From a virus: 64,000 nt of DNA. The DNA lies in IMG/VR virus record IMGVR_UViG_3300007352_000001, positions 124,001 through 188,000 of that record; one strand, written 5' to 3'. Made by a program: the position numbers and the translations under genes. Shown here one piece after another: positions 34,101-51,643 of this stretch (positions are counted from its first letter, which is position 1; each line of letters starts with the position of its first letter). The notes below the pieces were generated by a model. The model had not been told where the DNA came from, made no database searches, and worked only from the letters and a program-made list of their open reading frames with translations.

Positions 34101-34133
34101 TCGCAACATCACATCAACGAGGAGGGCATGGGA

Positions 34134-34838
34134 ATGCGGCTACTCAATCGACTCAAGGACATCGTCACCGCGGTGCTCGATCAGCGCGTGCAGGAGGCCG
34201 AGTCGCAGAACGCTGGCGCGCTCGCGCAGCAAGACATCGGCCGGCTCGAAGAAGCCCTGCGCGAGTCGTCCGGCGCTGTTGCCTCACTGGGCGCCGAAGT
34301 GCAAGCACAGGCCGACCTGGAAGCGGAACTGCGCGGGGAAGTACAGCGCTGGCACGACGTCGCCAAGATCGAGGCCGAAGCCGGGCACGACGACACAGCG
34401 CGCCAGGCGCTGCAGCGCAAGCTCGACGCCGCGGCCGAACTCCAGGCGGTCTCGACCGGCTACGCGGCGTTGAAGGAACGCTTCGAGACGGCCAAGGGGC
34501 GCGTGCTGGAGAATGCCGAGCGTCTCCAGCAAGCGAAGTCGCGCGTCCGCACCGCCGTCGCGCGTGACCAGGCCGAGCAAGCAACCGCCGCGGCTGATCG
34601 CGCGTTCGGTGACCTCGGGGATCACGAAGACCTCTTCCAGCGCATCGACGTGATGGAGGATCACATCGAGCGTCGCGAGCGCACCAACGAAGAGGCGCGC
34701 AAGCTGGCCGATCAGATCGCCGGCAAGGATCTCCTCCGTGCGGCCGATCAGACGGCGCGCACGCGGGCGGTCGAGGACGAGCTGGCGGCGCTCAAGACCC
34801 CGCCGCCGGCCGCACCGGCGAGTTCACCGACTGCCTGA
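34134..34838 (+). CDS. pspA: PspA/IM30-family coiled-coil protein (copy 1)
   Basis: A 234-residue protein of the PspA/Vipp1 (ESCRT-III-like) type: N-terminal amphipathic helix (MRLLNRLKDIVTAVLDQ), then about 190 residues of continuous charged coiled coil with the QALQRKLDAAAEL hairpin typical of the family and a short Pro/Ala tail. PspA proteins bind stressed or remodelled inner membranes. ATG 34134 is preferred (GGAGGG seven bases upstream). A second copy lies at 38275. Confidence 0.75.
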   Translation: MRLLNRLKDIVTAVLDQRVQEAESQNAGALAQQDIGRLEEALRESSGAVASLGAEVQAQADLEAELRGEVQRWHDVAKIEAEAGHDDTARQALQRKLDAAAELQAVSTGYAALKERFETAKGRVLENAERLQQAKSRVRTAVARDQAEQATAAADRAFGDLGDHEDLFQRIDVMEDHIERRERTNEEARKLADQIAGKDLLRAADQTARTRAVEDELAALKTPPPAAPASSPTA

Positions 34839-34844
34839 GCAGCA

Positions 34845-36071
34845 ATGCTCGAAGACACTACAACCGGCGGCGCGGACCCTTCGCGCTCAGCCCTAGCTGA
34901 GTACCGTCGCCACAAGGTGACACGAGGCGATCTTCACCCGCCGCATGCGTACCAGCCGGTTGTAGAGGGGGAGGGTGGCGCATCCACCCTCCCCCGTCCT
35001 TCGGAAGGGAGTGAAACAGGACCAGCTCTTGGCCAAGTCAATCGCACCCAAGCCGTGCCGCTCGTGTACGTCACTGGGGAGGAGCGCAGGCAGCTGCTGC
35101 GCTACGCGTATATCGCTGCGCGGTTCGGCAACCAGCTCCTCACGTCCCAGTACGCGCAGTTCACCGCCCGACAGCAGATCGCGGCGCTCGCCGAGCAACA
35201 CCAGGTGCCTGAGAAAGAGCTGCTGAAGGCGTGGACGGTCTATCGGGACTTCGCCGACGAGCTGTCAGGCTACGTCCGCGATGCCGTGCAGCGGGAAGTG
35301 CAAGGGATCTGGAAGCGCCTTTTCAAAGACATCATGGCTGGCCGGCAGACGCTGGCCTGTTTCAGGATGCACCGGGCGCTCTCGATCCGCGGGCGCGGTG
35401 TCACGCTGTTCAAGGACCAGGACAGTGCGTACCACTTCACGTTCCGCTTCGGGCCACGGTCGGGTGCGCCGACCCAGCTCTCAGTGTACATGGACACGTT
35501 GTGCCGCAATCCGTTTCTCGAAGCGTTGCTCGACAAGCTGATCGACGGCACCACGTACGAGATCACTCACGCGACGATTCGGATCCCACGCACCGGCAAC
35601 AAGCTGAAGGTGCTGCTGGGTTACCGGAAACCGGCTGTCGCGCAGCTGGTGCATGAGACGCGAGCCTTGGTCGCGCTCGAAGCGGGCGTGCTCGTTGTGC
35701 GCTGCGGCTCGACCATGATGACGCTTGGGGACCGTGTCTACCGCCTCCGTGAGATGAAGCTCCACCTCGACGGGATCCAGCGGCGCTTGCGCGCCACGCT
35801 CAATCGTCGCAGCCGGCGTGGGGAGTATCGCCGCCAGCTCGCACACGCGCAGAGCTTCGAGGAGTGGGCGCGGACTCCACTGCATCAGCTAAGCAGTGAG
35901 ATCGTCACGTGGGCACAGCGAGCCGGGGCCGGCCAACTCGTCTATATGATGCCGAGCACGGCCGACCTGCCCTGGGCGACGCTGCATCAGCAACTGGAGT
36001 ACAAGAGCGCTGAGCACGGCATGCGGTACGAACGAAGAGAGACGAAAGTTGAAAAGTCTGACGAGCCGTAG
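34845..36071 (+). CDS. TnpB/Cas12f-like protein with inactivated RuvC (TldR-like)
   Basis: A 408-residue protein whose central and C-terminal parts follow TnpB/Cas12f: REVQGIWKRLFKDIMAGRQT and CFRMHRALSIRGRGVTLFK match the wedge segment, KLKVLLGYRKP precedes RuvC, ALVALEAGV replaces the RuvC-I GxDxG, REMKLHLDGIQRRLRATLNR is the bridge-like helix, GQLVYMM replaces the RuvC-II (I/V)xxE, and LHQQLEYKSAEHGMRY matches the LxxKAxxxGI helix. The protein ends there, so the zinc finger and RuvC-III Asp are absent. It should bind DNA/RNA but not cut. The first 70 residues span a 12-bp hairpin and may be untranslated. No transposon ends are seen. Confidence 0.7.
   Translation: MLEDTTTGGADPSRSALAEYRRHKVTRGDLHPPHAYQPVVEGEGGASTLPRPSEGSETGPALGQVNRTQAVPLVYVTGEERRQLLRYAYIAARFGNQLLTSQYAQFTARQQIAALAEQHQVPEKELLKAWTVYRDFADELSGYVRDAVQREVQGIWKRLFKDIMAGRQTLACFRMHRALSIRGRGVTLFKDQDSAYHFTFRFGPRSGAPTQLSVYMDTLCRNPFLEALLDKLIDGTTYEITHATIRIPRTGNKLKVLLGYRKPAVAQLVHETRALVALEAGVLVVRCGSTMMTLGDRVYRLREMKLHLDGIQRRLRATLNRRSRRGEYRRQLAHAQSFEEWARTPLHQLSSEIVTWAQRAGAGQLVYMMPSTADLPWATLHQQLEYKSAEHGMRYERRETKVEKSDEP
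34967..34995 (+). other. Perfect 12-bp hairpin in the 5' part of the TnpB-like ORF
   Basis: GGGGGAGGGTGG (34967-34978) pairs with CCACCCTCCCCC (84-95) around CGCAT, followed by CCTTCGGAAGG (34998-35008) and AGTGAAACAGG. Such structure is atypical of coding DNA and suggests an RNA element preceding the TnpB-like protein. Confidence 0.55.
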
Positions 36072-36125: not shown

Positions 36126-36737
36126 ATGATGCGGATCAAGATCGGTGAGGGTGACGAGGCCGACGACTACGGCGTCGGGTTCGGATACCAGGAGAAGCGG
36201 CGCGGCCGGACGCGGAAGCAGGGCGGAACCCCGCACTTGTCGGTCACAACGACGGCGATCGTCCAGCTGCCCAAGCGGTTCCAGTTTGCCGATGTGTTCG
36301 GCGTCGGGCCGCACCAGACGGACGAGGACGGCACTCTGCGCGGGGTCGTGACGATCCACGATGACGAGGGTGACCCGACGTTGACGGCCGAGGAACGCGC
36401 CAAGCACGCGTTCGTGGTCGAAGTCGTGCAACCGAAGGGCAAGGACGAGGCGCTCGATCGCGTCATGCTGATCGCCAGAACACGGTGCCACTCAGTGGCG
36501 GACGTCTACGATCGCGGCCGTGGCCGGCGCGGGGCGTTGCGCCGAGTGCTGACCGGGTTCAAGCAACTGCTTCCTGACGTCTATCTCGCCAAGGGCGATC
36601 GCCGCAGCGTACTCGCCAAGCAGATCTGGGCGATGTACTTCGACCGCACGCGGGACGGCGTCGAGTTTGGCATGCGCGGCCCGTTTCTGAAGACGGACAA
36701 GAAAGAGGCTGTGCTGGATCCCGCTCCTTTGGAGTGA
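36126..36737 (+). CDS. Hypothetical protein (203 aa)
   Basis: Starts with ATG 36126 behind AAGGAGTGAGCA. Glycine/aspartate-rich N-terminus, strand-rich middle, a basic helix (RRGALRRVLTGFKQL) and no recognisable catalytic site. Lies between the TnpB-like protein and RtcB. Its leader (36072-36125) contains a CAACAAT/ATTGTGG imperfect stem. Confidence 0.65.
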   Translation: MMRIKIGEGDEADDYGVGFGYQEKRRGRTRKQGGTPHLSVTTTAIVQLPKRFQFADVFGVGPHQTDEDGTLRGVVTIHDDEGDPTLTAEERAKHAFVVEVVQPKGKDEALDRVMLIARTRCHSVADVYDRGRGRRGALRRVLTGFKQLLPDVYLAKGDRRSVLAKQIWAMYFDRTRDGVEFGMRGPFLKTDKKEAVLDPAPLE

Positions 36738-36739
36738 CC

Positions 36740-38167
36740 ATGTCCTTGAAGTACCGCGCAGAGTTGCACGGGACGAACCACTACGTGTTGCCGCGCATCG
36801 GCACGATGCGGTGCGACGTGCACGCGTTCATGTCCCCAGAGCTGTACACGATCAGCGACGAAGGCACCTGGCAACAAGCCTTCGACGCTGCGTCGTACCC
36901 GAACGTGCGCGGAGTCTACCTGATGCCCGACTGCCATCTCGGGTACGGCATCCCGGTTGGCGGTGTAGTTGTCACCGACGGCGTGATCATCCAGTCGGGG
37001 TCGGGGTACGACATCTCATGCGGTGTCATCTACATGCGCTTGCCGGGAGTCACCGCAGCCGACGTCGTTGACTGGGAGCGCCGGCTGCGATGGGTGCGGG
37101 AAGTCGAGCTGCGGGTGGCCACTGGTGTCGGCCGGCACCGCCCGAAGCTCGCCCCCAAGATCACTGGTCGGATGATCGCCGAGGTCTTGCTCCACGGTGC
37201 CAAGCCCTTGGGCGTGTCGGCCGACGTGTGCGAGCGGCAGTTCATCCAGGTCGACGAGAAGCACTTCGACTCACAGCGGGTCGAGCGCGCCATCGAGCGT
37301 GCTGGCGACCAGCTTGGCTCGGTCGGCGGCGGCAACCACTTCATCGAGCTGCAGGTGGATCGAGACACCGGTGAGGTGTGGGCGATGGTGCACTGTGGCA
37401 GCCGCGGCTTTGGTTGGCAGACGGCCAACCACTTTTTCTTCGCGGGCGCGGAAGCGCGCGGCCTGCCGAAGAACCGGCGCGAGTCGTCGTGGCTGTACGC
37501 CGACGAAGAAGTCGGGAAGCAGTATTGGGCGCATCACAACGCGGCGGCGAACTACGCGATCGCCAACCGGCACATGATCGTCGAAGGCGTGCGCGAGGCG
37601 ACGCAGGAAGTGTTCGCGGCGAGCCCAGAGGTCTACTTCGAGATCTCGCACAACCTCGTGCAAGACGAGCGCGTGCTCGTGCCTGGTGCGGACGGCTCCT
37701 ACGAGTTTGTGCGTGGGTTCGTGCACCGTAAAGGCGCGACGCGCGCCTTCCCGGCACACCACCCCGATCTCGTCGGGACGAAGTGGGAAGAGACTGGGCA
37801 CCCGTGTCTGATTCCAGGCTCGATGCTCGACGGAGCTGCGATCTTGTTCCCGACCTTCCGCACGGTGGAGAGCGGGTTCTCAGTCAACCACGGCTCGGGT
37901 CGTGCCGTGGCGCGTGGACAGGCCAAGCGAGATCTCGAACCGCTGCAAGAGGACATCGACACCGAAATGCGGACGATCCGCCGCACAGTCGGCCCCGACC
38001 GGGTCGAGATCGTGGGCATTGTTGGCAACACAGCGAAGACGCCACTCGATGAGTGCGGACACGTCTACAAGAAGCTCGACCAGGTTGTAGGATCGCTGGT
38101 TGATGCCGGCGTGGCCACCGTTAGTGCGCGACTGTATCCCGTGGCGAACTTGAAAGGGACGGACTGA
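36740..38167 (+). CDS. rtcB: RtcB-type RNA-splicing ligase
   Basis: A 475-residue RtcB: MPDCHLGYGIPVGGV (about residues 62-76) with metal-binding Asp/Cys/His, GSGYDISCG (about 91-99), QLGSVGGGNHFIEL (about 193-206), HCGSRGFG, and the C-terminal HGSGRAVAR (about 386-394), whose His accepts guanylate. RtcB joins 2',3'-cyclic phosphate ends to 5'-OH ends, the products of anticodon nucleases, so it can repair tRNAs cut in anti-phage defence. ATG 36740 follows GGAG; the stop of the preceding gene overlaps GTG 36734. Confidence 0.92.
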   Translation: MSLKYRAELHGTNHYVLPRIGTMRCDVHAFMSPELYTISDEGTWQQAFDAASYPNVRGVYLMPDCHLGYGIPVGGVVVTDGVIIQSGSGYDISCGVIYMRLPGVTAADVVDWERRLRWVREVELRVATGVGRHRPKLAPKITGRMIAEVLLHGAKPLGVSADVCERQFIQVDEKHFDSQRVERAIERAGDQLGSVGGGNHFIELQVDRDTGEVWAMVHCGSRGFGWQTANHFFFAGAEARGLPKNRRESSWLYADEEVGKQYWAHHNAAANYAIANRHMIVEGVREATQEVFAASPEVYFEISHNLVQDERVLVPGADGSYEFVRGFVHRKGATRAFPAHHPDLVGTKWEETGHPCLIPGSMLDGAAILFPTFRTVESGFSVNHGSGRAVARGQAKRDLEPLQEDIDTEMRTIRRTVGPDRVEIVGIVGNTAKTPLDECGHVYKKLDQVVGSLVDAGVATVSARLYPVANLKGTD

Positions 38168-38274
38168 CGCTGGGCCTTGCTCGTGGTGGGGTGAGGTCCG
38201 GTTCTGCCCGAGGCGGTTGGTGTTGGGAAGAGCGCCAGCCGTCTCGGGTTCCACCGAGTGAAAGGAGGAGGGCG

Positions 38275-38937
38275 ATGGCTGTTCGTGATCGGGTACACCG
38301 ATTGGTCACCGGTGCGTTTCATCAGATGATCTCTGCGATCGAGAACCAGGCTCCAGATGCCGTGATGGAGCAGGCGATTCGCGAGGCTGACGAGGCAACC
38401 GAGGAAGCTCGCAGTGAGTTGGCGCAAGTGCTGACGCGACAGCATTTGGCGTCGTCGCGTATCGCACGCGATACGGACGCGCTGCGCGCACTGGACGCGC
38501 AGGTGCAGTTGGCTCTGAAGGAGAAACGAGAGGACCTCGCGCGCGAAGCAGTCGCGCGGCAACTGGACCTCGAAGCGCAACTGTCGGTCGTGCAGGAGGC
38601 GGCGGATCACGAAGCGCATGCACGCGCTGACCTCGAACGCATGATCCTCGCGCTCGATGCCCAGCGGCGAGAGATGCGCGAGGAGTTGGCAGCGTTCCGC
38701 GCTCAGCAGGACCGGGCCGTTCCAGGCGTTGACGCACCACCGATGGGTGGCGTCACGGGGACCGTCGCGGAGCAGCGGGCTCGCCGGGCGAAAGAAGTGT
38801 TCGGCGATGTCATGAGCCGGCAGACGAATCTCCCGCGGCCACTCGGGTCCACCAGCAAGCTCCAAGAGTTGGCGGACCTGGAGCGGACACATCGGATTGA
38901 CGAACGACTCGCTGCTGCGAAGGCACAGCAAGGTTAG
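38275..38937 (+). CDS. pspA: PspA/IM30-family coiled-coil protein (copy 2)
   Basis: A 220-residue, almost wholly helical protein: an N-terminal amphipathic helix (RDRVHRLVTGAFHQMISAIE), then the PspA-like DAVMEQAIREADEATEEARSE segment and a long coiled coil (EDLAREAVARQLDLEAQL). The Ala/Glu/Arg heptads match copy 1 at 34134 in kind but not closely in sequence. Directly followed, two bases later, by a YqiJ-like membrane protein and a flotillin, the same order as in bacterial pspA-yqiJ-yqiK-like clusters. Confidence 0.75.
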   Translation: MAVRDRVHRLVTGAFHQMISAIENQAPDAVMEQAIREADEATEEARSELAQVLTRQHLASSRIARDTDALRALDAQVQLALKEKREDLAREAVARQLDLEAQLSVVQEAADHEAHARADLERMILALDAQRREMREELAAFRAQQDRAVPGVDAPPMGGVTGTVAEQRARRAKEVFGDVMSRQTNLPRPLGSTSKLQELADLERTHRIDERLAAAKAQQG

Positions 38938-38939
38938 CC

Positions 38940-39626
38940 GTGACTTCCTTCACCTTCCTGCTGCAGGCGGGCGTGTGGCCGTTCACGGCAAGCCTGTCCT
39001 TGGTCGTGGTGCTCGCGATCTTGGAGTTCATGACGTACGTGGCAGGCCTTGGTGGAATCACGCATGCATTCGAGCACGCCTTTGGTGTCGATCTCGATGG
39101 CGACTTCGACATGGCGCACCCAGATTTCTCTCACGGGGGCGTCTTCGTAAAGGCCGTGAACTGGGCGCGGGTGGGAGAACTTCCACTGTCGATCTTACTG
39201 ATCACGTGGTGGTTCCTCTTCGGCATCGTGGGGGTGGGGGCACAATACGCGTCGTCGATCGTGCTTGGTGGTGCCACGATGCCGTTTTGGATCGTGGTCT
39301 GGCCAGTGATGGCCGTGTCGATTGGCGCGTACCGAGGGTGCGCGCGGATCTTTGTGCGGGTCTTGCCGACTGATGTCGAGACGTACGCGGTCGAGCCGTC
39401 GTCGTTCGTCGGAAGGACGGCAACTGTGGTCATGGGTACGGCGACCGTGACCGCCCCTGCTCAAGCTCGCTTGGTGGATCAGTACGGGAACGCGCACTAC
39501 GTCATGGTCGAGCCGAGCGATCCAGAGCAGGCGTTCGCGCCTGGTGCCACCGTGCTGCTTGTTGAACAAAACGACGCGGTATTCCGCGTTATCAACCCGC
39601 CGAGCGCACTGTTACTCGGCACGTGA
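38940..39626 (+). CDS. YqiJ/NfeD-like membrane protein with OB-fold tail
   Basis: A 228-residue protein with hydrophobic helices at about residues 5-35, 78-105 and 112-130 and a C-terminal soluble beta domain (VGRTATVVMGTATVTAPAQA, then strand pairs) that fits the OB-fold of YqiJ/NfeD proteins, partners of flotillins. The short loops carry a His/Asp-rich segment (FDMAHPDFSHGG). GTG start two bases after PspA copy 2. Expected to be in the inner membrane next to the flotillin encoded downstream. Confidence 0.75.
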   Translation: MTSFTFLLQAGVWPFTASLSLVVVLAILEFMTYVAGLGGITHAFEHAFGVDLDGDFDMAHPDFSHGGVFVKAVNWARVGELPLSILLITWWFLFGIVGVGAQYASSIVLGGATMPFWIVVWPVMAVSIGAYRGCARIFVRVLPTDVETYAVEPSSFVGRTATVVMGTATVTAPAQARLVDQYGNAHYVMVEPSDPEQAFAPGATVLLVEQNDAVFRVINPPSALLLGT

Positions 39627-39639
39627 TGGGGGAGAGCTG

Positions 39640-41436
39640 ATGGAAGGTTTGATCGGAATCGGGATGGTGGTCGCAGTCTGCATGGCCGGGCTGGGTGCGA
39701 TTGCCTTCATGATGTCGCGGCTCTACGTGCGCGCCACGCCCGAGTGGGCACTGGTCCGCAGCGGCTACCGCGGCAAGAAGGTTGTGATCGACGGCGGGTG
39801 CTTCGTCCTGCCGGTCTACCACGAGATCCAGCGGGTCAACATGAAGACGGTGAAGCTCGCCGTCACGCGCCAGCAGCGGGACTCGTTGATCACCAAGGAT
39901 CGGCTGCGCGTCGATGTCATCGTGGAGTTCTACGTCCGCGCCAAGCCGGACGCGACGGCGATCCCGGAAGCGGCTCGGACGCTCGGGGAGCGCACCGCCG
40001 ACCAAGCGGCGCTCAAGGATCTCATCGAGGGCAAAGCGGTCGGCGTGCTGCGTGCGGTTGCGGCGCGCATGACGATGGCAGAGCTGCACGAGGACCGGGC
40101 GAAGTTCGAGCAGGAAGTGCTGAACGGCGTGCAGAAGGACCTGACGAAGAACGGCCTCGAACTGGAGTCGTCGGCGATGACGCACTTCAACCAGACGGCC
40201 AAAGAGTTCTTTGTCGCCGAGAACGCCTTTGACGCCGAAGGGCTCGCAATGCTCACCGCTGCGGTCGAGCAGCGTCGGCAAGAGGTGAACAACATCGAGG
40301 TGACCACGCGCGTGGCGATCGAGACGCGCAATCTCGAAGGGCAGCGGCGATCGTTGCAACTCGCGCAGGATACGCAGGAGGCGATGCTGACTCAGCAGCT
40401 CGCCATCGAGACCGCCACTGCGCAGCGCAAACGTGAGATCGCACAACAGCAGGCAGAGCAGGATCGGCTGGCGCAAGAGGCGCAGATCGCCGCGCAACAG
40501 CAAGTGCAGCTGGCGTCGGTCGAAGCCGAACGGACTGTGCAAGAGGCGAAGGCGCAACAGCACGCCGCCGTGCAACAGGCGCAGATCGCTTCAGAGCGGG
40601 CGGTGAAGGTGGCCGACGAACAGCGCCAGCGTGATGTGGCGGTGGCGGCTGAGGAACGTCAGCGTGACGTGGAAGTGGCCAAACAGGAGCGCAACATCAA
40701 GGTGCAGACCAAGAGCGAGGAGCTGTCGGGTGCCACGGCCAGTGCTGAACGCGCTCGTGCCGAGGCGGTCGTAGCCGAGCAGCAGGTCATCACGGCCCAA
40801 GCGGTGGCCTCCGCGGATCGTGAGAAGCAAGTGGCGGTGATCGCGGCTGAGCGCGAGGCACAGCAGGGGGCGGTCGGCCTGGTGGTCAACGCCAAGGCGC
40901 ATGAGGATGCCGCCGCACACGAGGCCGCAGCTGTCATGGTGAGAGCGACGGCGGATACCGACGCCAAGCGCCTCGCCCTGGAGATCGCGGAGCGTGACTT
41001 CGCGGTCCGCGCCACGGGCACGCGGCTCTTGCACGAGTCCGAGAACGTGCTCGGGCAGTCGGCGATGGACTTGCGGCTGCGCCTGGCCCTGGTCGAGCAC
41101 GCCGCGGCGATGATCACTGCGGCCGGCAAGCCGGTCGAGCACATCAAGGATCTGCGGGTCATTGCCGTGCAGGGCATTCCGGGGCTGGCGGGGCCGTTGC
41201 CGGTGAACGGCGACGGCTCTACCGTTGCCAACGGCACTGGGCACGACGCCGGATTGCCCGACCAGATCGTCAATGCGGCCCTGCGTCACCAGGCGCTCGC
41301 GCCGCTGGTTGGGCTGTTGATGGGGGAGATCGGCATCGACCCCACGACCATGAATGGCATTGCTCGCCCTCTGACTGACATGGCGGTGGCGCGGCCCGCC
41401 CACCCAGCGAACGGAGATGCCCGAGCGTCGAGCTAA
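39640..41436 (+). CDS. Flotillin (YqiK-like)
   Basis: A 598-residue protein: one N-terminal transmembrane segment (IGIGMVVAVCMAGLGAIAFMM), a PHB/SPFH domain at about residues 25-230 (EWALVRSGYRGKKVVIDGG through the TKNGLELESSAM segment), a long Ala/Glu/Gln coiled coil (about 230-470) and a C-terminal segment with GSTVANGTG. This is the layout of YqiK/FloA-type flotillins, which oligomerise on the inner membrane and organise microdomains. It ends a set starting with PspA and YqiJ-like proteins, a remarkable cargo for a phage. Confidence 0.85.
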   Translation: MEGLIGIGMVVAVCMAGLGAIAFMMSRLYVRATPEWALVRSGYRGKKVVIDGGCFVLPVYHEIQRVNMKTVKLAVTRQQRDSLITKDRLRVDVIVEFYVRAKPDATAIPEAARTLGERTADQAALKDLIEGKAVGVLRAVAARMTMAELHEDRAKFEQEVLNGVQKDLTKNGLELESSAMTHFNQTAKEFFVAENAFDAEGLAMLTAAVEQRRQEVNNIEVTTRVAIETRNLEGQRRSLQLAQDTQEAMLTQQLAIETATAQRKREIAQQQAEQDRLAQEAQIAAQQQVQLASVEAERTVQEAKAQQHAAVQQAQIASERAVKVADEQRQRDVAVAAEERQRDVEVAKQERNIKVQTKSEELSGATASAERARAEAVVAEQQVITAQAVASADREKQVAVIAAEREAQQGAVGLVVNAKAHEDAAAHEAAAVMVRATADTDAKRLALEIAERDFAVRATGTRLLHESENVLGQSAMDLRLRLALVEHAAAMITAAGKPVEHIKDLRVIAVQGIPGLAGPLPVNGDGSTVANGTGHDAGLPDQIVNAALRHQALAPLVGLLMGEIGIDPTTMNGIARPLTDMAVARPAHPANGDARASS

Positions 41437-41749
41437 GGTCGTTCGTGTCGGTGACCACAGTAGTGCGTCGGCGATCTCGATTGCGGTGATGGGGCTGGCT
41501 CTCAAAGAGCAGCCCCTCACCAACGTCGAGCTGCAATACCTGCGCGAGCAGTCTGGGATCACGATCGACACGATGGCGAACGTGGTGTGTTTGACACCAC
41601 GGACTGTGCGTCGAATCGAGGACGGCAGATCAAAGCTGGCGTACGCCGCTGAGGCGCTCTGGCGCCTCGCTGCCGTTCACTGGTTCGCGGTCCGTGCAGA
41701 ACGATTCATCCTCTACAACCGACCCGCATCGAGACGGAGGGCTTCGTGA
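41417..41749 (+). CDS. Helix-turn-helix regulator (XRE-like, 110 aa)
   Basis: Residues about 35-75 (ELQYLREQSGITIDTMANVV and RTVRRIEDGRSKL) form an XRE-type helix-turn-helix. The start overlaps the flotillin stop. It could control the membrane module or the NAD genes that follow. The ATG of the next gene overlaps its stop. Confidence 0.65.
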   Translation: MPERRAKVVRVGDHSSASAISIAVMGLALKEQPLTNVELQYLREQSGITIDTMANVVCLTPRTVRRIEDGRSKLAYAAEALWRLAAVHWFAVRAERFILYNRPASRRRAS

Positions 41750-43137
41750 TGTGGCGCATCAACCCGATCCTGTGCACGGACAGCTACAAGCACACGCACC
41801 ATCCGCAGCTGCCACCGGACGCCGAGGTCTTCTTCTCGTACTTCGAGGCGCGTGGTGGCGACTACCCAGCCACCAACTGGTTTGGGTTGCAGGCGATCAT
41901 CCAGGAGCACCTCATCGGTGAGGTCATCACCGACGAAGACATCTACGAGGCGCGCGACGTCGCCCGCTTCCTGCACGGCGGTGAGGATTACTTCAACATC
42001 GACGGGTGGCGGCGCATTGTGGGCGACCACGGCGGCAAGTACCCGGTGCGCATCCGCGCGGTACCCGAAGGCACCTGGGTGCCGACCTCGAACGTGCTCT
42101 ACACCATGGAGAACCGCGACAAGAAGCTGCCGTGGCTGAACAGCCACTTGGAGACCATGTGCGTGCAGTCGTGGTACCCGATGGGCGTCTCGACGCTGAG
42201 CGGTTTCCTGAAACCGATCTTTCAGCGGTATCTCGAACAGACCGGATCGCCGGAACTGCTCCGGACGAGACTCCATGACTTCGGGATCCGTGGCACAACC
42301 TGCATGCACCAAGCGGCACGCGGCGGTGCTGGGCACCTCGTGCACTTTGATGGCACCGACAACTACCCAGCGATGTTGCTGCTGCGCGACTTCTACGGCG
42401 GCAAGCTCTACGGCTCGTCGGTGCCGGCCGCGGAGCACTCGACGATCACGTCGTGGGGTCCTGAGCGTGAGCAGGATGCGTACGAGAACCTCCTGCGCCA
42501 ATACCCGCGCGGACTGGTCGCCCTGCCGACTGATTCGTACAACACGCTGAAAGCGATCCACATGTTGACTGTGACTCTGCGCGACTTGGTGGAAGCGCGC
42601 GACGGCGTCTTGGTCATGCGGCAGGACTCCGGTGACCCGAGTGAGACGATGCGCCAGGTCTTGGCGGTCGCCGGCCAGAACGCCGGGTACCACCTGAACG
42701 ACAAGAGCTACCGAGTGTTGAACCCGAAGTACCGGGTCCTGCAATCTGAAGGCGTGAATCGCGCCGAGATCAACCAGATGCTCTGGCTCCTCACCAACAA
42801 CACCTGGTCGATCGACAACATCGTCTTCGGCATGGGCGGTGCGCTTCTGCAGAAGCTCGATCGCGACACGTCTTTCTGCGCGTGCAAGTGCTCGTGGGTC
42901 GGGCTCTCTGACGGAACGGGCCGCGACGTCTACAAAATGGCGCCCGGCAAACGTTCCAAGCGCGGCCGACTGAAGCTCGTCGAACAGAAGGGCGAGCTGA
43001 CCACGGTCCGGCAGGAAGAAGCTGGCAAGGATCTCCTGGAGGACATCTACGACTGCGGCCAGCTGCTCAACCCGTACACCTTCGACCAGGTGCGAGCGAA
43101 CGCCGAAGCGTCTTGGCGTCCGCGGTGGGCGCACTGA
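41749..43137 (+). CDS. nadV: Nicotinamide phosphoribosyltransferase
   Basis: A 462-residue NAMPT/NadV: N-terminal NPILCTDSYKHTHHPQLP, FDGTDN near residue 200, HSTITSWG near residue 228, VMRQDSGDP (the PRPP-phosphate strand), IVFGMGGALLQKLDRDT (the phosphate-binding loop), all in the order of human NAMPT and NadV. It makes NMN from nicotinamide and PRPP. Together with the NMN adenylyltransferase encoded at 43412 it completes a two-step NAD salvage route that matches the NARP2 anti-defence pathway. Start GTG 41746 is an alternative. Confidence 0.92.
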   Translation: MWRINPILCTDSYKHTHHPQLPPDAEVFFSYFEARGGDYPATNWFGLQAIIQEHLIGEVITDEDIYEARDVARFLHGGEDYFNIDGWRRIVGDHGGKYPVRIRAVPEGTWVPTSNVLYTMENRDKKLPWLNSHLETMCVQSWYPMGVSTLSGFLKPIFQRYLEQTGSPELLRTRLHDFGIRGTTCMHQAARGGAGHLVHFDGTDNYPAMLLLRDFYGGKLYGSSVPAAEHSTITSWGPEREQDAYENLLRQYPRGLVALPTDSYNTLKAIHMLTVTLRDLVEARDGVLVMRQDSGDPSETMRQVLAVAGQNAGYHLNDKSYRVLNPKYRVLQSEGVNRAEINQMLWLLTNNTWSIDNIVFGMGGALLQKLDRDTSFCACKCSWVGLSDGTGRDVYKMAPGKRSKRGRLKLVEQKGELTTVRQEEAGKDLLEDIYDCGQLLNPYTFDQVRANAEASWRPRWAH

Positions 43138-43415
43138 TGGAGCTGAACGACACCACCTGGGTGCTGATCGGTGTGCCAGAGGCGCTCACCAAACTCGCTC
43201 CGGACGTCCACTGGTCACAGACCCACGTCTGCTGCACGTGCGGCGAGCGGCTCTACACCAACGAAGAGATGCGCGGGATTCTCGCCAGCGCCGACCATCA
43301 CATCCACACCGTGTGCTTTCGCTGTGGGCTGAGTCTTGCAGAGAAGCACAAGGATGACGTCGCGATCGAGTGGGTTGAGGAGATCGCGGAAGGCATGAAA
43401 GGGCCACTGCAATGA
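43137..43415 (+). CDS. Small zinc-binding protein (92 aa)
   Basis: CCTCGERL (residues about 32-39) and CFRCGLSL (residues about 60-67) form a LIM- or ribbon-like zinc site with intervening His residues; acidic C-terminus. Overlaps NadV and the next gene by one and four bases, so it is within the NAD operon. Function unknown. Confidence 0.6.
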   Translation: MELNDTTWVLIGVPEALTKLAPDVHWSQTHVCCTCGERLYTNEEMRGILASADHHIHTVCFRCGLSLAEKHKDDVAIEWVEEIAEGMKGPLQ

Positions 43416-44344
43416 CGGACATGCAGCCAGTCGAAGAGAGCGGTAGTCGTAGCGTCGGGATCGTGATCGGCCGCTTTCAGGCCCACGCGTTGCACCATGT
43501 GCACCGCTCGCTGATCGAGTATGTCATGGGGCAACACAGCCGCGTCGCGATCTTCCTGGGGGTCGCGCCGATCCCCGGCACGCCGCGCAACCCGCTCGAC
43601 TTCGAGACGCGCAAGCGCATGCTGCAGGACGTCTGGCCGGACCTGCCGGTGCTCGATCTGCACGACCGCCCGACCGACGACGAGTGGAGCCAACTGCTCG
43701 ACGAGCGCGTGCGCTCGCTCTATCCGACGCAGAAAGCCGTGCTCTACGGTGGGCGCGATTCGTTCATCAGTCACTACACCGGCCGGTTGCCGGCGCGTGA
43801 GCTGGAGCCGGCAACGTACGTAGCCCAAGTCTCAGCCACGCAGCTGCGCCAGCTTGCGGCCTCGGGCGTGGCGGCGTCAGAGGACTTCCGCCGCGGCGTG
43901 ATCTTCGGGGTCCACAACCGTTACACGCGCACCGCGATCCCCGCCGTCGACATCGCTGTGGTTCGTGGGGAGGAGCAGGTACTGCTCGGCCGCAAGCCGC
44001 ACGAGACCGGCTGGCGTTTCCCTGGCGGCATCGTCGAAGACGACGAAACCTACGAGCAGGCCGTGCTGCGGGAGTTGCGCGAGGAAGCCGGTGCGCTCGA
44101 CGTCGAGGACCTCCACTACTTGGCGAGCTTCAAGGTCGATGACTGGCGCTACCGCGGTGAAGCGATGGGCATCATGACCGCCTTCTATCGCGCGACGTGG
44201 GTCGCCGGTACGCCGCTGCCGGGCGATGATCTCGCCGAGGTCCGTTGGGCGGGGCTCGTGTCGCTCACGCAGGAGGAGATCGTCCCGTCGCACTGGCCCT
44301 TGGTGCAGAAGCTCTGGTACCCGCCGACTCGGACGGAACGCTGA
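43412..44344 (+). CDS. Bifunctional NMN adenylyltransferase / Nudix hydrolase
   Basis: A 310-residue fusion. N-terminal domain: IGRFQAHALHHVH (about residues 19-31) corresponds to the GRFQPxHxGH signature of NadM/NadR-type adenylyltransferases; ISATQLRQ-like SATQLRQ (about 144-150) matches the ISSTxIR motif. C-terminal domain: a complete Nudix box GGIVEDDETYEQAVLRELRE plus EAG (about 204-226). This domain combination is known (cyanobacterial NadM-Nudix). It converts NMN and ATP to NAD; the Nudix part may remove ADP-ribose or damaged nucleotides. Second step of the salvage route. Confidence 0.88.
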   Translation: MTDMQPVEESGSRSVGIVIGRFQAHALHHVHRSLIEYVMGQHSRVAIFLGVAPIPGTPRNPLDFETRKRMLQDVWPDLPVLDLHDRPTDDEWSQLLDERVRSLYPTQKAVLYGGRDSFISHYTGRLPARELEPATYVAQVSATQLRQLAASGVAASEDFRRGVIFGVHNRYTRTAIPAVDIAVVRGEEQVLLGRKPHETGWRFPGGIVEDDETYEQAVLRELREEAGALDVEDLHYLASFKVDDWRYRGEAMGIMTAFYRATWVAGTPLPGDDLAEVRWAGLVSLTQEEIVPSHWPLVQKLWYPPTRTER

Positions 44345-51240: not shown

Positions 51241-51643
51241 GGCCTTCTGTGAGGGCGAGTCGGGAAGAGCCCCCGACTCGCCACCGCGCGACGACTGTGA
51301 CGTCGATTGGCCGCGCATAGAACGTCTCACCACCTGGTTTGGTGAAGTACGTCTCCAGTCGGACGAAGCCGGCATTGAGGGCGACAATCCACACGGTGCG
51401 CCAGTCGTTCTTCTCCGGCTCAACGCGAATGACGGTGGAGCTAGTCGGGCTCAGGAGGTAGTTGACGATCGCGTCCTCGGCGATCTCTGACCTGAGTAGG
51501 TACTTCTTTCCCAGCTCCAGGCACGCCACGCGCGCTGGGATCACTCCATGCAACTGGTGAGCGGCGCAGCGGGCTTGATCGAGTCGCTCTTGAGCGCGCC
51601 GAAACTTACGCTCCCGCCGCGACGAGCGCGACACCGTCGCCAT
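51215..51643 (-). CDS. Hypothetical protein (142 aa)
   Basis: A leftward gene overlapping the portal gene end by 26 bases (tail to tail) and its upstream partner by 38. Basic helical N-terminus (RRERKFRRAQERLDQAR) and a strand-rich C-terminal half. Last gene of the leftward block. Function unknown. Confidence 0.65.
   Translation of the reverse strand: MATVSRSSRRERKFRRAQERLDQARCAAHQLHGVIPARVACLELGKKYLLRSEIAEDAIVNYLLSPTSSTVIRVEPEKNDWRTVWIVALNAGFVRLETYFTKPGGETFYARPIDVTVVARWRVGGSSRLALTEGLTAVDVVD

What the first reader, a model, noticed from the sequence alone, without database searches (positions are those of the whole stretch)
34845..36071. Phage-encoded TnpB/Cas12f-like protein with dead, truncated RuvC: possible RNA-guided repressor (TldR-like)
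The protein shows the TnpB/Cas12f landmarks, but the RuvC-I aspartate position is ALEAGV, the RuvC-II glutamate position is LVYMM, and the protein ends just after the LEYKSAEHGMRY helix, before the zinc finger and RuvC-III. No transposon ends are visible. TldR proteins are TnpB descendants with the same losses that act as guide-RNA-dependent repressors, several of them carried by phages. Family resemblance is established knowledge; the TldR role here is inference.
Basis: partly seen in the sequence, partly recalled or inferred. Interest (0 to 1): 0.92.

Follow-up and report, generated by a model that had tools for sequence, protein, structure and literature searches.

The report
Phage dead Cas12f with candidate RNA
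A very large bacterial virus carries a CRISPR-type (Cas12f) protein that has lost its DNA-cutting parts but kept the fold that grips guide RNA and DNA, and just before the gene lies a strongly folded RNA that could be its guide, so the virus may use it to switch genes rather than cut them; this role is inferred, not shown.

Summary
The ORF at 34845-36071, in a 241-kb jumbo-phage record, encodes a TnpB/Cas12f homologue that is almost certainly nuclease-dead. The RuvC-I Asp is Glu, the RuvC-II Glu segment is deleted, and the chain stops before the zinc finger and RuvC-III. The next gene starts 55 nt later, so this is not a frameshift. An AlphaFold2 model (pLDDT 81) matches AsCas12f best (Foldseek E 1.7e-14) and also the solved natural dCas12f-gRNA complex (9n9c, 4e-13). 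TnpB matches are weaker (2e-7), so Cas12f is the nearer relative.

Two corrections. Coding probably starts near 35055; the upstream 34856-34997 looks non-coding and folds into a cloverleaf plus a 12-bp hairpin (z -6.8; second most structured of 79 intergenic gaps). And no gRNA-like structure lies downstream, where TldR guides sit.

No sigma70 region-2 match, CRISPR array or guide target was found in the record. No close relative turned up in any collection searched, so covariation could not be tested.

Best reading: an exapted, non-cutting Cas12f RNP acting as an RNA-guided DNA-binding regulator, with the upstream RNA as candidate guide. Family and nuclease loss are shown; RNA partner, target and repression are inferred.

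The parts
35055..36071 (+). Probable coding region of the dead Cas12f-like protein (338 aa from GTG 35055; the open frame extends back to ATG 34845)
   Evidence: Profiles, codon score start, AlphaFold2 model and Foldseek
35679..35681 (+). RuvC-I position: Glu (GAA) in ALEAGV where 33 of 34 aligned proteins have Asp (AsCas12f1 D225)
35931..35957 (+). RuvC-II region (GQLVYMMPS): the segment with the catalytic Glu (AsCas12f1 E324) is deleted
35994..36071 (+). Last conserved helix (LEYKSAEHGMRY) and the C-terminus; no zinc finger, no RuvC-III
34856..34997 (+). Candidate structured RNA: 11-bp stem closing a multi-hairpin loop (34858-34966) and a perfect 12-bp hairpin (34967-34995)
   Evidence: z -6.8, 0 of 500 shuffles; second of 79 gaps; hairpin is the longest perfect one in the window
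34998..35054 (+). Stretch between the structured RNA and the probable start; where a 3' guide or a leader would lie (inference)
   Evidence: position only; no match in the phage beyond chance; SD-like GGAAGGGAG at 35004-35012

Best explanation
A jumbo phage carries an exapted Cas12f-family protein that kept the RNA/DNA-gripping body (wedge, REC and RuvC core folds) but lost all three catalytic RuvC motifs and the zinc finger. Most likely it binds a structured RNA, for which the element directly upstream (34856-34997) is the best candidate, and uses it to occupy DNA without cutting, so as to block or redirect transcription during infection. Shown: family, fold (by model) and loss of catalytic residues. 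Supported but not proven: that the upstream segment is a structured RNA. Inferred: that the protein binds it, that it carries a guide, that the target is DNA, and that the result is gene regulation.
For: Profile matches to Cas12f and TnpB; all three catalytic motifs lost where 33 of 34 aligned proteins keep them; model with pLDDT 81 whose best PDB matches are Cas12f-gRNA-DNA complexes, including natural dCas12f-gRNA 9n9c with the same truncation; pI 10 with 53 K+R against 35 D+E; intact frame with coding bias; structured RNA in the adjacent 5' gap. By established knowledge, non-cutting relatives (TldR, PMC13418256; Cas12m, PMC10442227 and PMC11013384) regulate or silence by RNA-guided DNA binding.
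Against: No RNA partner, guide or target could be identified: no guide match in the phage, no CRISPR array, no 3' gRNA. The RNA has no homologue, so no covariation test, and structured gaps are not rare in this phage (10 of 79 with z below -4.8). Known TnpB/TldR guides lie 3' of the gene, and related loci are more structured there than upstream. Structure may be only a terminator or leader.
Confidence: 0.42

Rival explanations
1. Decoy or dominant-negative: the dead protein sequesters guide RNAs of host TnpB/Cas12f systems, or pairs with host Cas12f into inactive dimers, and so protects the phage (an anti-CRISPR-like role).
For: Phage setting; no guide, array or target of its own found; Cas12f is known to work as a dimer (general knowledge; two protein chains in the solved complexes).
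Against: Very diverged from known host Cas12f/TnpB (at most about 20% identity), which does not suit mimicry; a structured RNA of its own is adjacent.
Confidence: 0.17
2. RNA-binding autoregulator: the protein binds the upstream leader of its own mRNA and controls its own operon; no guide and no DNA target.
For: The structured element lies in the probable 5' leader; other gaps in this cassette have structured leaders too (38168-38301).
Against: The retained fold includes the parts that hold the guide-target duplex; no precedent known to me.
Confidence: 0.15
3. dCas12f-sigma-E-like activator: the protein recruits RNA polymerase to guide-matched promoters with a sigma factor.
For: Closest solved protein with the same truncation is natural dCas12f (9n9c); that it works with a sigma-E factor is recalled from memory.
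Against: No PF04542 match anywhere in the record and none of the flanking genes looks like a sigma factor. A very diverged phage sigma, or a host one, could be missed.
Confidence: 0.08
4. A decaying remnant of a TnpB/Cas12f gene with no function.
For: Truncated, highly diverged, and no relatives found.
Against: Intact 338-codon frame with normal codon bias, a confident compact model, and a tightly spaced next gene 55 nt on.
Confidence: 0.12

Closest known systems
Natural nuclease-deactivated Cas12f (PDB 9n9c, 9n9m; 365 aa)
   Same: Cas12f fold, chain ends at the same place before zinc finger and RuvC-III; Foldseek E 4.2e-13, TM 0.51 both ways; profile alignment to chain residue 363 of 365
   Different: About 16% identity; no sigma factor found here; phage setting; candidate RNA upstream
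Cas12f1 (AsCas12f1, type V-F / V-U3)
   Same: Best structural match (8j12, 1.7e-14) and best PADLOC family
   Different: Catalytic D225/E324/D401 and zinc finger lost; no CRISPR array
TldR (TnpB-like nuclease-dead repressor; PMC13418256)
   Same: TnpB superfamily, nuclease lost, several carried by phages, no transposon ends seen
   Different: Nearer to Cas12f than to TnpB; no 3' gRNA; lytic-type jumbo phage rather than prophage; no linked target gene recognised
Cas12m (type V-M; PMC10442227, PMC11013384)
   Same: Cas12 effector that silences by binding DNA without cutting it; weaker fold match (8hhm, 6.6e-7)
   Different: Much larger, CRISPR-associated, not truncated in this way

Membership tests
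TnpB/Cas12f superfamily | Sequence profile match over most of the protein | tested here: met
   NF040570 1.7e-8, PADLOC Cas12f 2e-9
TnpB/Cas12f superfamily | Wedge, REC and RuvC-core fold | tested here: met
   AlphaFold2 pLDDT 81 and Foldseek to Cas12f; model made with Cas12f/TnpB rows, so not fully independent
Cas12f (type V-F nuclease) | RuvC D-E-D triad | tested here: not met
   Glu, deletion, absent
Cas12f (type V-F nuclease) | CRISPR array | tested here: not met
   No spaced repeats of 16 nt suggesting an array in the 241-kb record
TldR | TnpB descent with inactivated RuvC | tested here: inconclusive
   Inactivation met; descent leans to Cas12f; no tree was built
TldR | gRNA encoded at or just after the 3' end of the gene | tested here: not met
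   z about 0, 54 nt to the next gene
TldR | Guide matching the promoter or gene that is repressed | tested here: inconclusive
   No match in the phage beyond chance; host unknown
TldR | RNA-guided DNA binding and repression | not testable with these tools
   Needs RIP-seq, ChIP-seq or a reporter
dCas12f-sigma-E | Truncated nuclease-dead Cas12f | tested here: met
dCas12f-sigma-E | Adjacent ECF sigma factor (definition recalled from memory) | tested here: not met
   Flanking genes are PspA, RtcB and unknowns without hits; no PF04542 in the record

The most novel reading that the evidence does not exclude
A self-contained RNA-guided DNA-binding module of a lytic-type jumbo phage: a dead Cas12f whose natural single guide RNA is encoded directly 5' of the protein, rather than 3' of it (TnpB/TldR) or in a CRISPR array (Cas12f), used to reprogramme host or phage transcription during infection.
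Probability: 0.27. Interest if true: 0.88.

Novelty: new variant of a known kind. Interest (0 to 1): 0.62.

Why it matters
Natural non-cutting descendants of TnpB and Cas12f are the known RNA-guided transcription regulators outside CRISPR defence, and few are described. A lineage in a jumbo phage, without a sigma partner or array and with an upstream candidate RNA, would be another independent exaptation. It would suggest that such phages use RNA-guided gene control, and would offer a small (338 aa) DNA-binding protein.

Tried and rejected
Close relatives of the protein: none in viral contigs, genome contigs, phages, plasmids, or 798 genomes of two bacterial phyla; the few weak hits there were short, most with stops inside, and the one opened (L267) is a chance frame overlapping unrelated genes.

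Kin phages by RtcB, DNA polymerase, portal and the neighbouring unknown gene: only distant ones (portal at most 33% identity; RtcB 53%). One of 28 such records has a TnpB, over the family cut-off.

Zinc ribbon at record position 237878 (PF07282 E 1e-4): a 74-aa frame 78 kb away next to a lysozyme-like gene; judged a generic zinc ribbon, not the missing half.

Guide targets in the phage: matches at chance level. Rfam: nothing credible.

First z-score for the RNA (-8.7) came from 25 shuffles and is an overestimate. With 500 shuffles and tuned ends it is -6.8; with a fixed 150-nt tile it is -5.6, tenth of the 60 refined tiles. A coarse 40-nt tiling cut the hairpin and hid it; fine tiling ranks the gap second of 79.

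Alignment A4 misplaced RuvC-I and was not used. The paper on dCas12f and sigma-E was not found in the library; what is said of it beyond PDB titles is from memory.

Full report
WHERE IT IS. The window is bases 124001-188000 of a 241,426-base virus record. Gene content is that of a T4-supergroup-like jumbo phage: T4-type portal, UvsX-like recombinase, DnaB-like helicase, DNA polymerase, and seven tRNAs in the window. It is an orphan lineage: the best portals in IMG/VR are about 30% identical and no DNA polymerase or neighbour-gene relative was found by pattern scan.

THE PROTEIN. The ORF 34845-36071 matches guided_TnpB (E 1.7e-8), phrog_506 transposase (1.8e-5), and PADLOC Cas12f PDLC01699 (2e-9) and Cas12u3 (1e-7). 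It scores poorly against ordinary phage TnpBs (8 bits with a 39-sequence profile). Pfam's TNB domain is seen only in its first third, and weakly. So the protein belongs to the superfamily and leans to the Cas12f1 (V-U3) side.

LOSS OF THE NUCLEASE. In an alignment with 33 proteins (viral, archaeal, AsCas12f1, TnpB) the three catalytic columns are D, E and D in 33 of 34. Here they are Glu, a deletion, and absent. The chain ends after the helix LEYKSAEHGMRY, and the next gene starts 55 nt downstream, so zinc finger and RuvC-III are truly missing.

STRUCTURE. AlphaFold2 with that alignment gave mean pLDDT 81.2 and pTM 0.64. Foldseek against the PDB puts AsCas12f first (1.7e-14), then OsCas12f; at 4.2e-13 comes the natural dCas12f-gRNA complex 9n9c, the solved protein with the same truncation (TM 0.51 both ways); TnpB follows at 2e-7. 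The alignment given to AlphaFold held Cas12f and TnpB proteins, so the model is supportive rather than independent.

THE START AND THE UPSTREAM RNA. Codons 1-60 of the ORF do not look coding: the codon score is about 0 to -0.8 per 15-codon block against mostly 0.2-1.0 later, and GC by codon position is 0.76/0.58/0.57 against roughly 0.67/0.44/0.84 in the phage's genes. A codon-score gene caller starts the gene at GTG 35055. There is no good Shine-Dalgarno at that codon, and an SD-like GGAAGGGAG at 35004-35012 has no start codon at the right distance. The start is therefore uncertain, and translation from ATG 34845 is not excluded. The region 34856-34997 folds into an 11-bp stem closing a multi-hairpin loop, followed by a perfect 12-bp hairpin: -80.4 kcal/mol, z -6.8, 0 of 500 shuffles as stable. 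Among 79 intergenic gaps of at least 110 nt it ranks second, level with the tRNA-Ser gap. Ten of the 79 gaps have z below -4.8, so a structured gap next to this gene is suggestive, not decisive. No Rfam family matches credibly. The element is single-copy in the phage, and a covariance model found nothing credible in the other loci or in 32 other records. Without homologues, covariation could not be tested.

WHAT IS NOT THERE. No guide-RNA-like structure at the 3' end of the gene. In 56 Cas12f/TnpB loci, mostly viral, the 3' end was the more structured side (41% with z below -2, against 17% upstream), so an upstream RNA would be unusual. No CRISPR array in the record, no sigma70 region-2 match, no guide match in the phage beyond chance, and no inverted-repeat transposon ends around the gene (no search for a TnpA transposase was made).

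HOW IT LIKELY WORKS. Established knowledge: Cas12f and TnpB bind a structured RNA and use its guide to open DNA; the RuvC site only cuts. Natural relatives that lost cutting act by RNA-guided DNA binding (TldR, PMC13418256; Cas12m, PMC10442227 and PMC11013384). From anatomy the most economical reading is an RNA-guided, non-cutting DNA binder, with the adjacent upstream RNA as first candidate for its guide. Shown: family, modelled fold, loss of nuclease. Supported: a structured RNA upstream. Inferred: binding, guide, target, repression. Rivals are a decoy against host Cas12f/TnpB, an autoregulator of its own leader, a sigma-dependent activator, and a remnant.

MEMBERSHIP. It is a member of the TnpB/Cas12f superfamily. 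It is not an active Cas12f. It should not be filed as TldR, because the 3' gRNA was tested and not found, nor as a dCas12f-sigma-E system, because no sigma factor was found. It may still work like either. Novelty: a new variant of a known kind.

Noticed in passing
window 34128-34838 and 38191-41436: A membrane-stress cassette around the gene: a PspA/IM30 protein (PF04012 4.9e-12), by eye a second PspA-like protein (about 38275-38937), an NfeD/YuaF-like membrane protein and a flotillin-like protein. Unusual for a phage.
   Followed up: partly
window 41746-44344: Nicotinamide phosphoribosyltransferase (phrog_448, 3e-122) followed by a cytidyltransferase/NUDIX protein: looks like an NAD salvage pathway, of the kind phages use against NAD-depleting defences (the link to counter-defence is from general knowledge).
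   Followed up: no
window 36734-38167: RtcB RNA ligase (PF01139 7e-81) directly downstream; 53% identical homologue in a 376-kb viral contig (L003).
   Followed up: partly
window 38168-38301: Another strongly structured gap (z -5.9) with a long hairpin, ahead of the second PspA-like gene; terminator or leader.
   Followed up: no
window 51254-51282: 11-bp perfect GC-rich hairpin just after the portal gene, without a T run: this phage may use such hairpins as terminators, a caution for reading the 34967-34995 hairpin as part of a guide RNA.
   Followed up: no
record 237878-237976 (L001 1501-1599): Small zinc-ribbon frame (74 aa) that rings the TNB model at E 1e-4, next to a lysozyme-like gene; probably generic.
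   Followed up: partly
record 227451-227600 and 208301-208450: The two most structured tiles of the whole record (z -7.3 and -6.7) lie inside predicted genes; unexplained.
   Followed up: no
L205 3197-3357: Downstream of a viral Cas12f/TnpB-type gene a segment folds with z -9.1 (60 shuffles); possible omega RNA or terminator.
   Followed up: no
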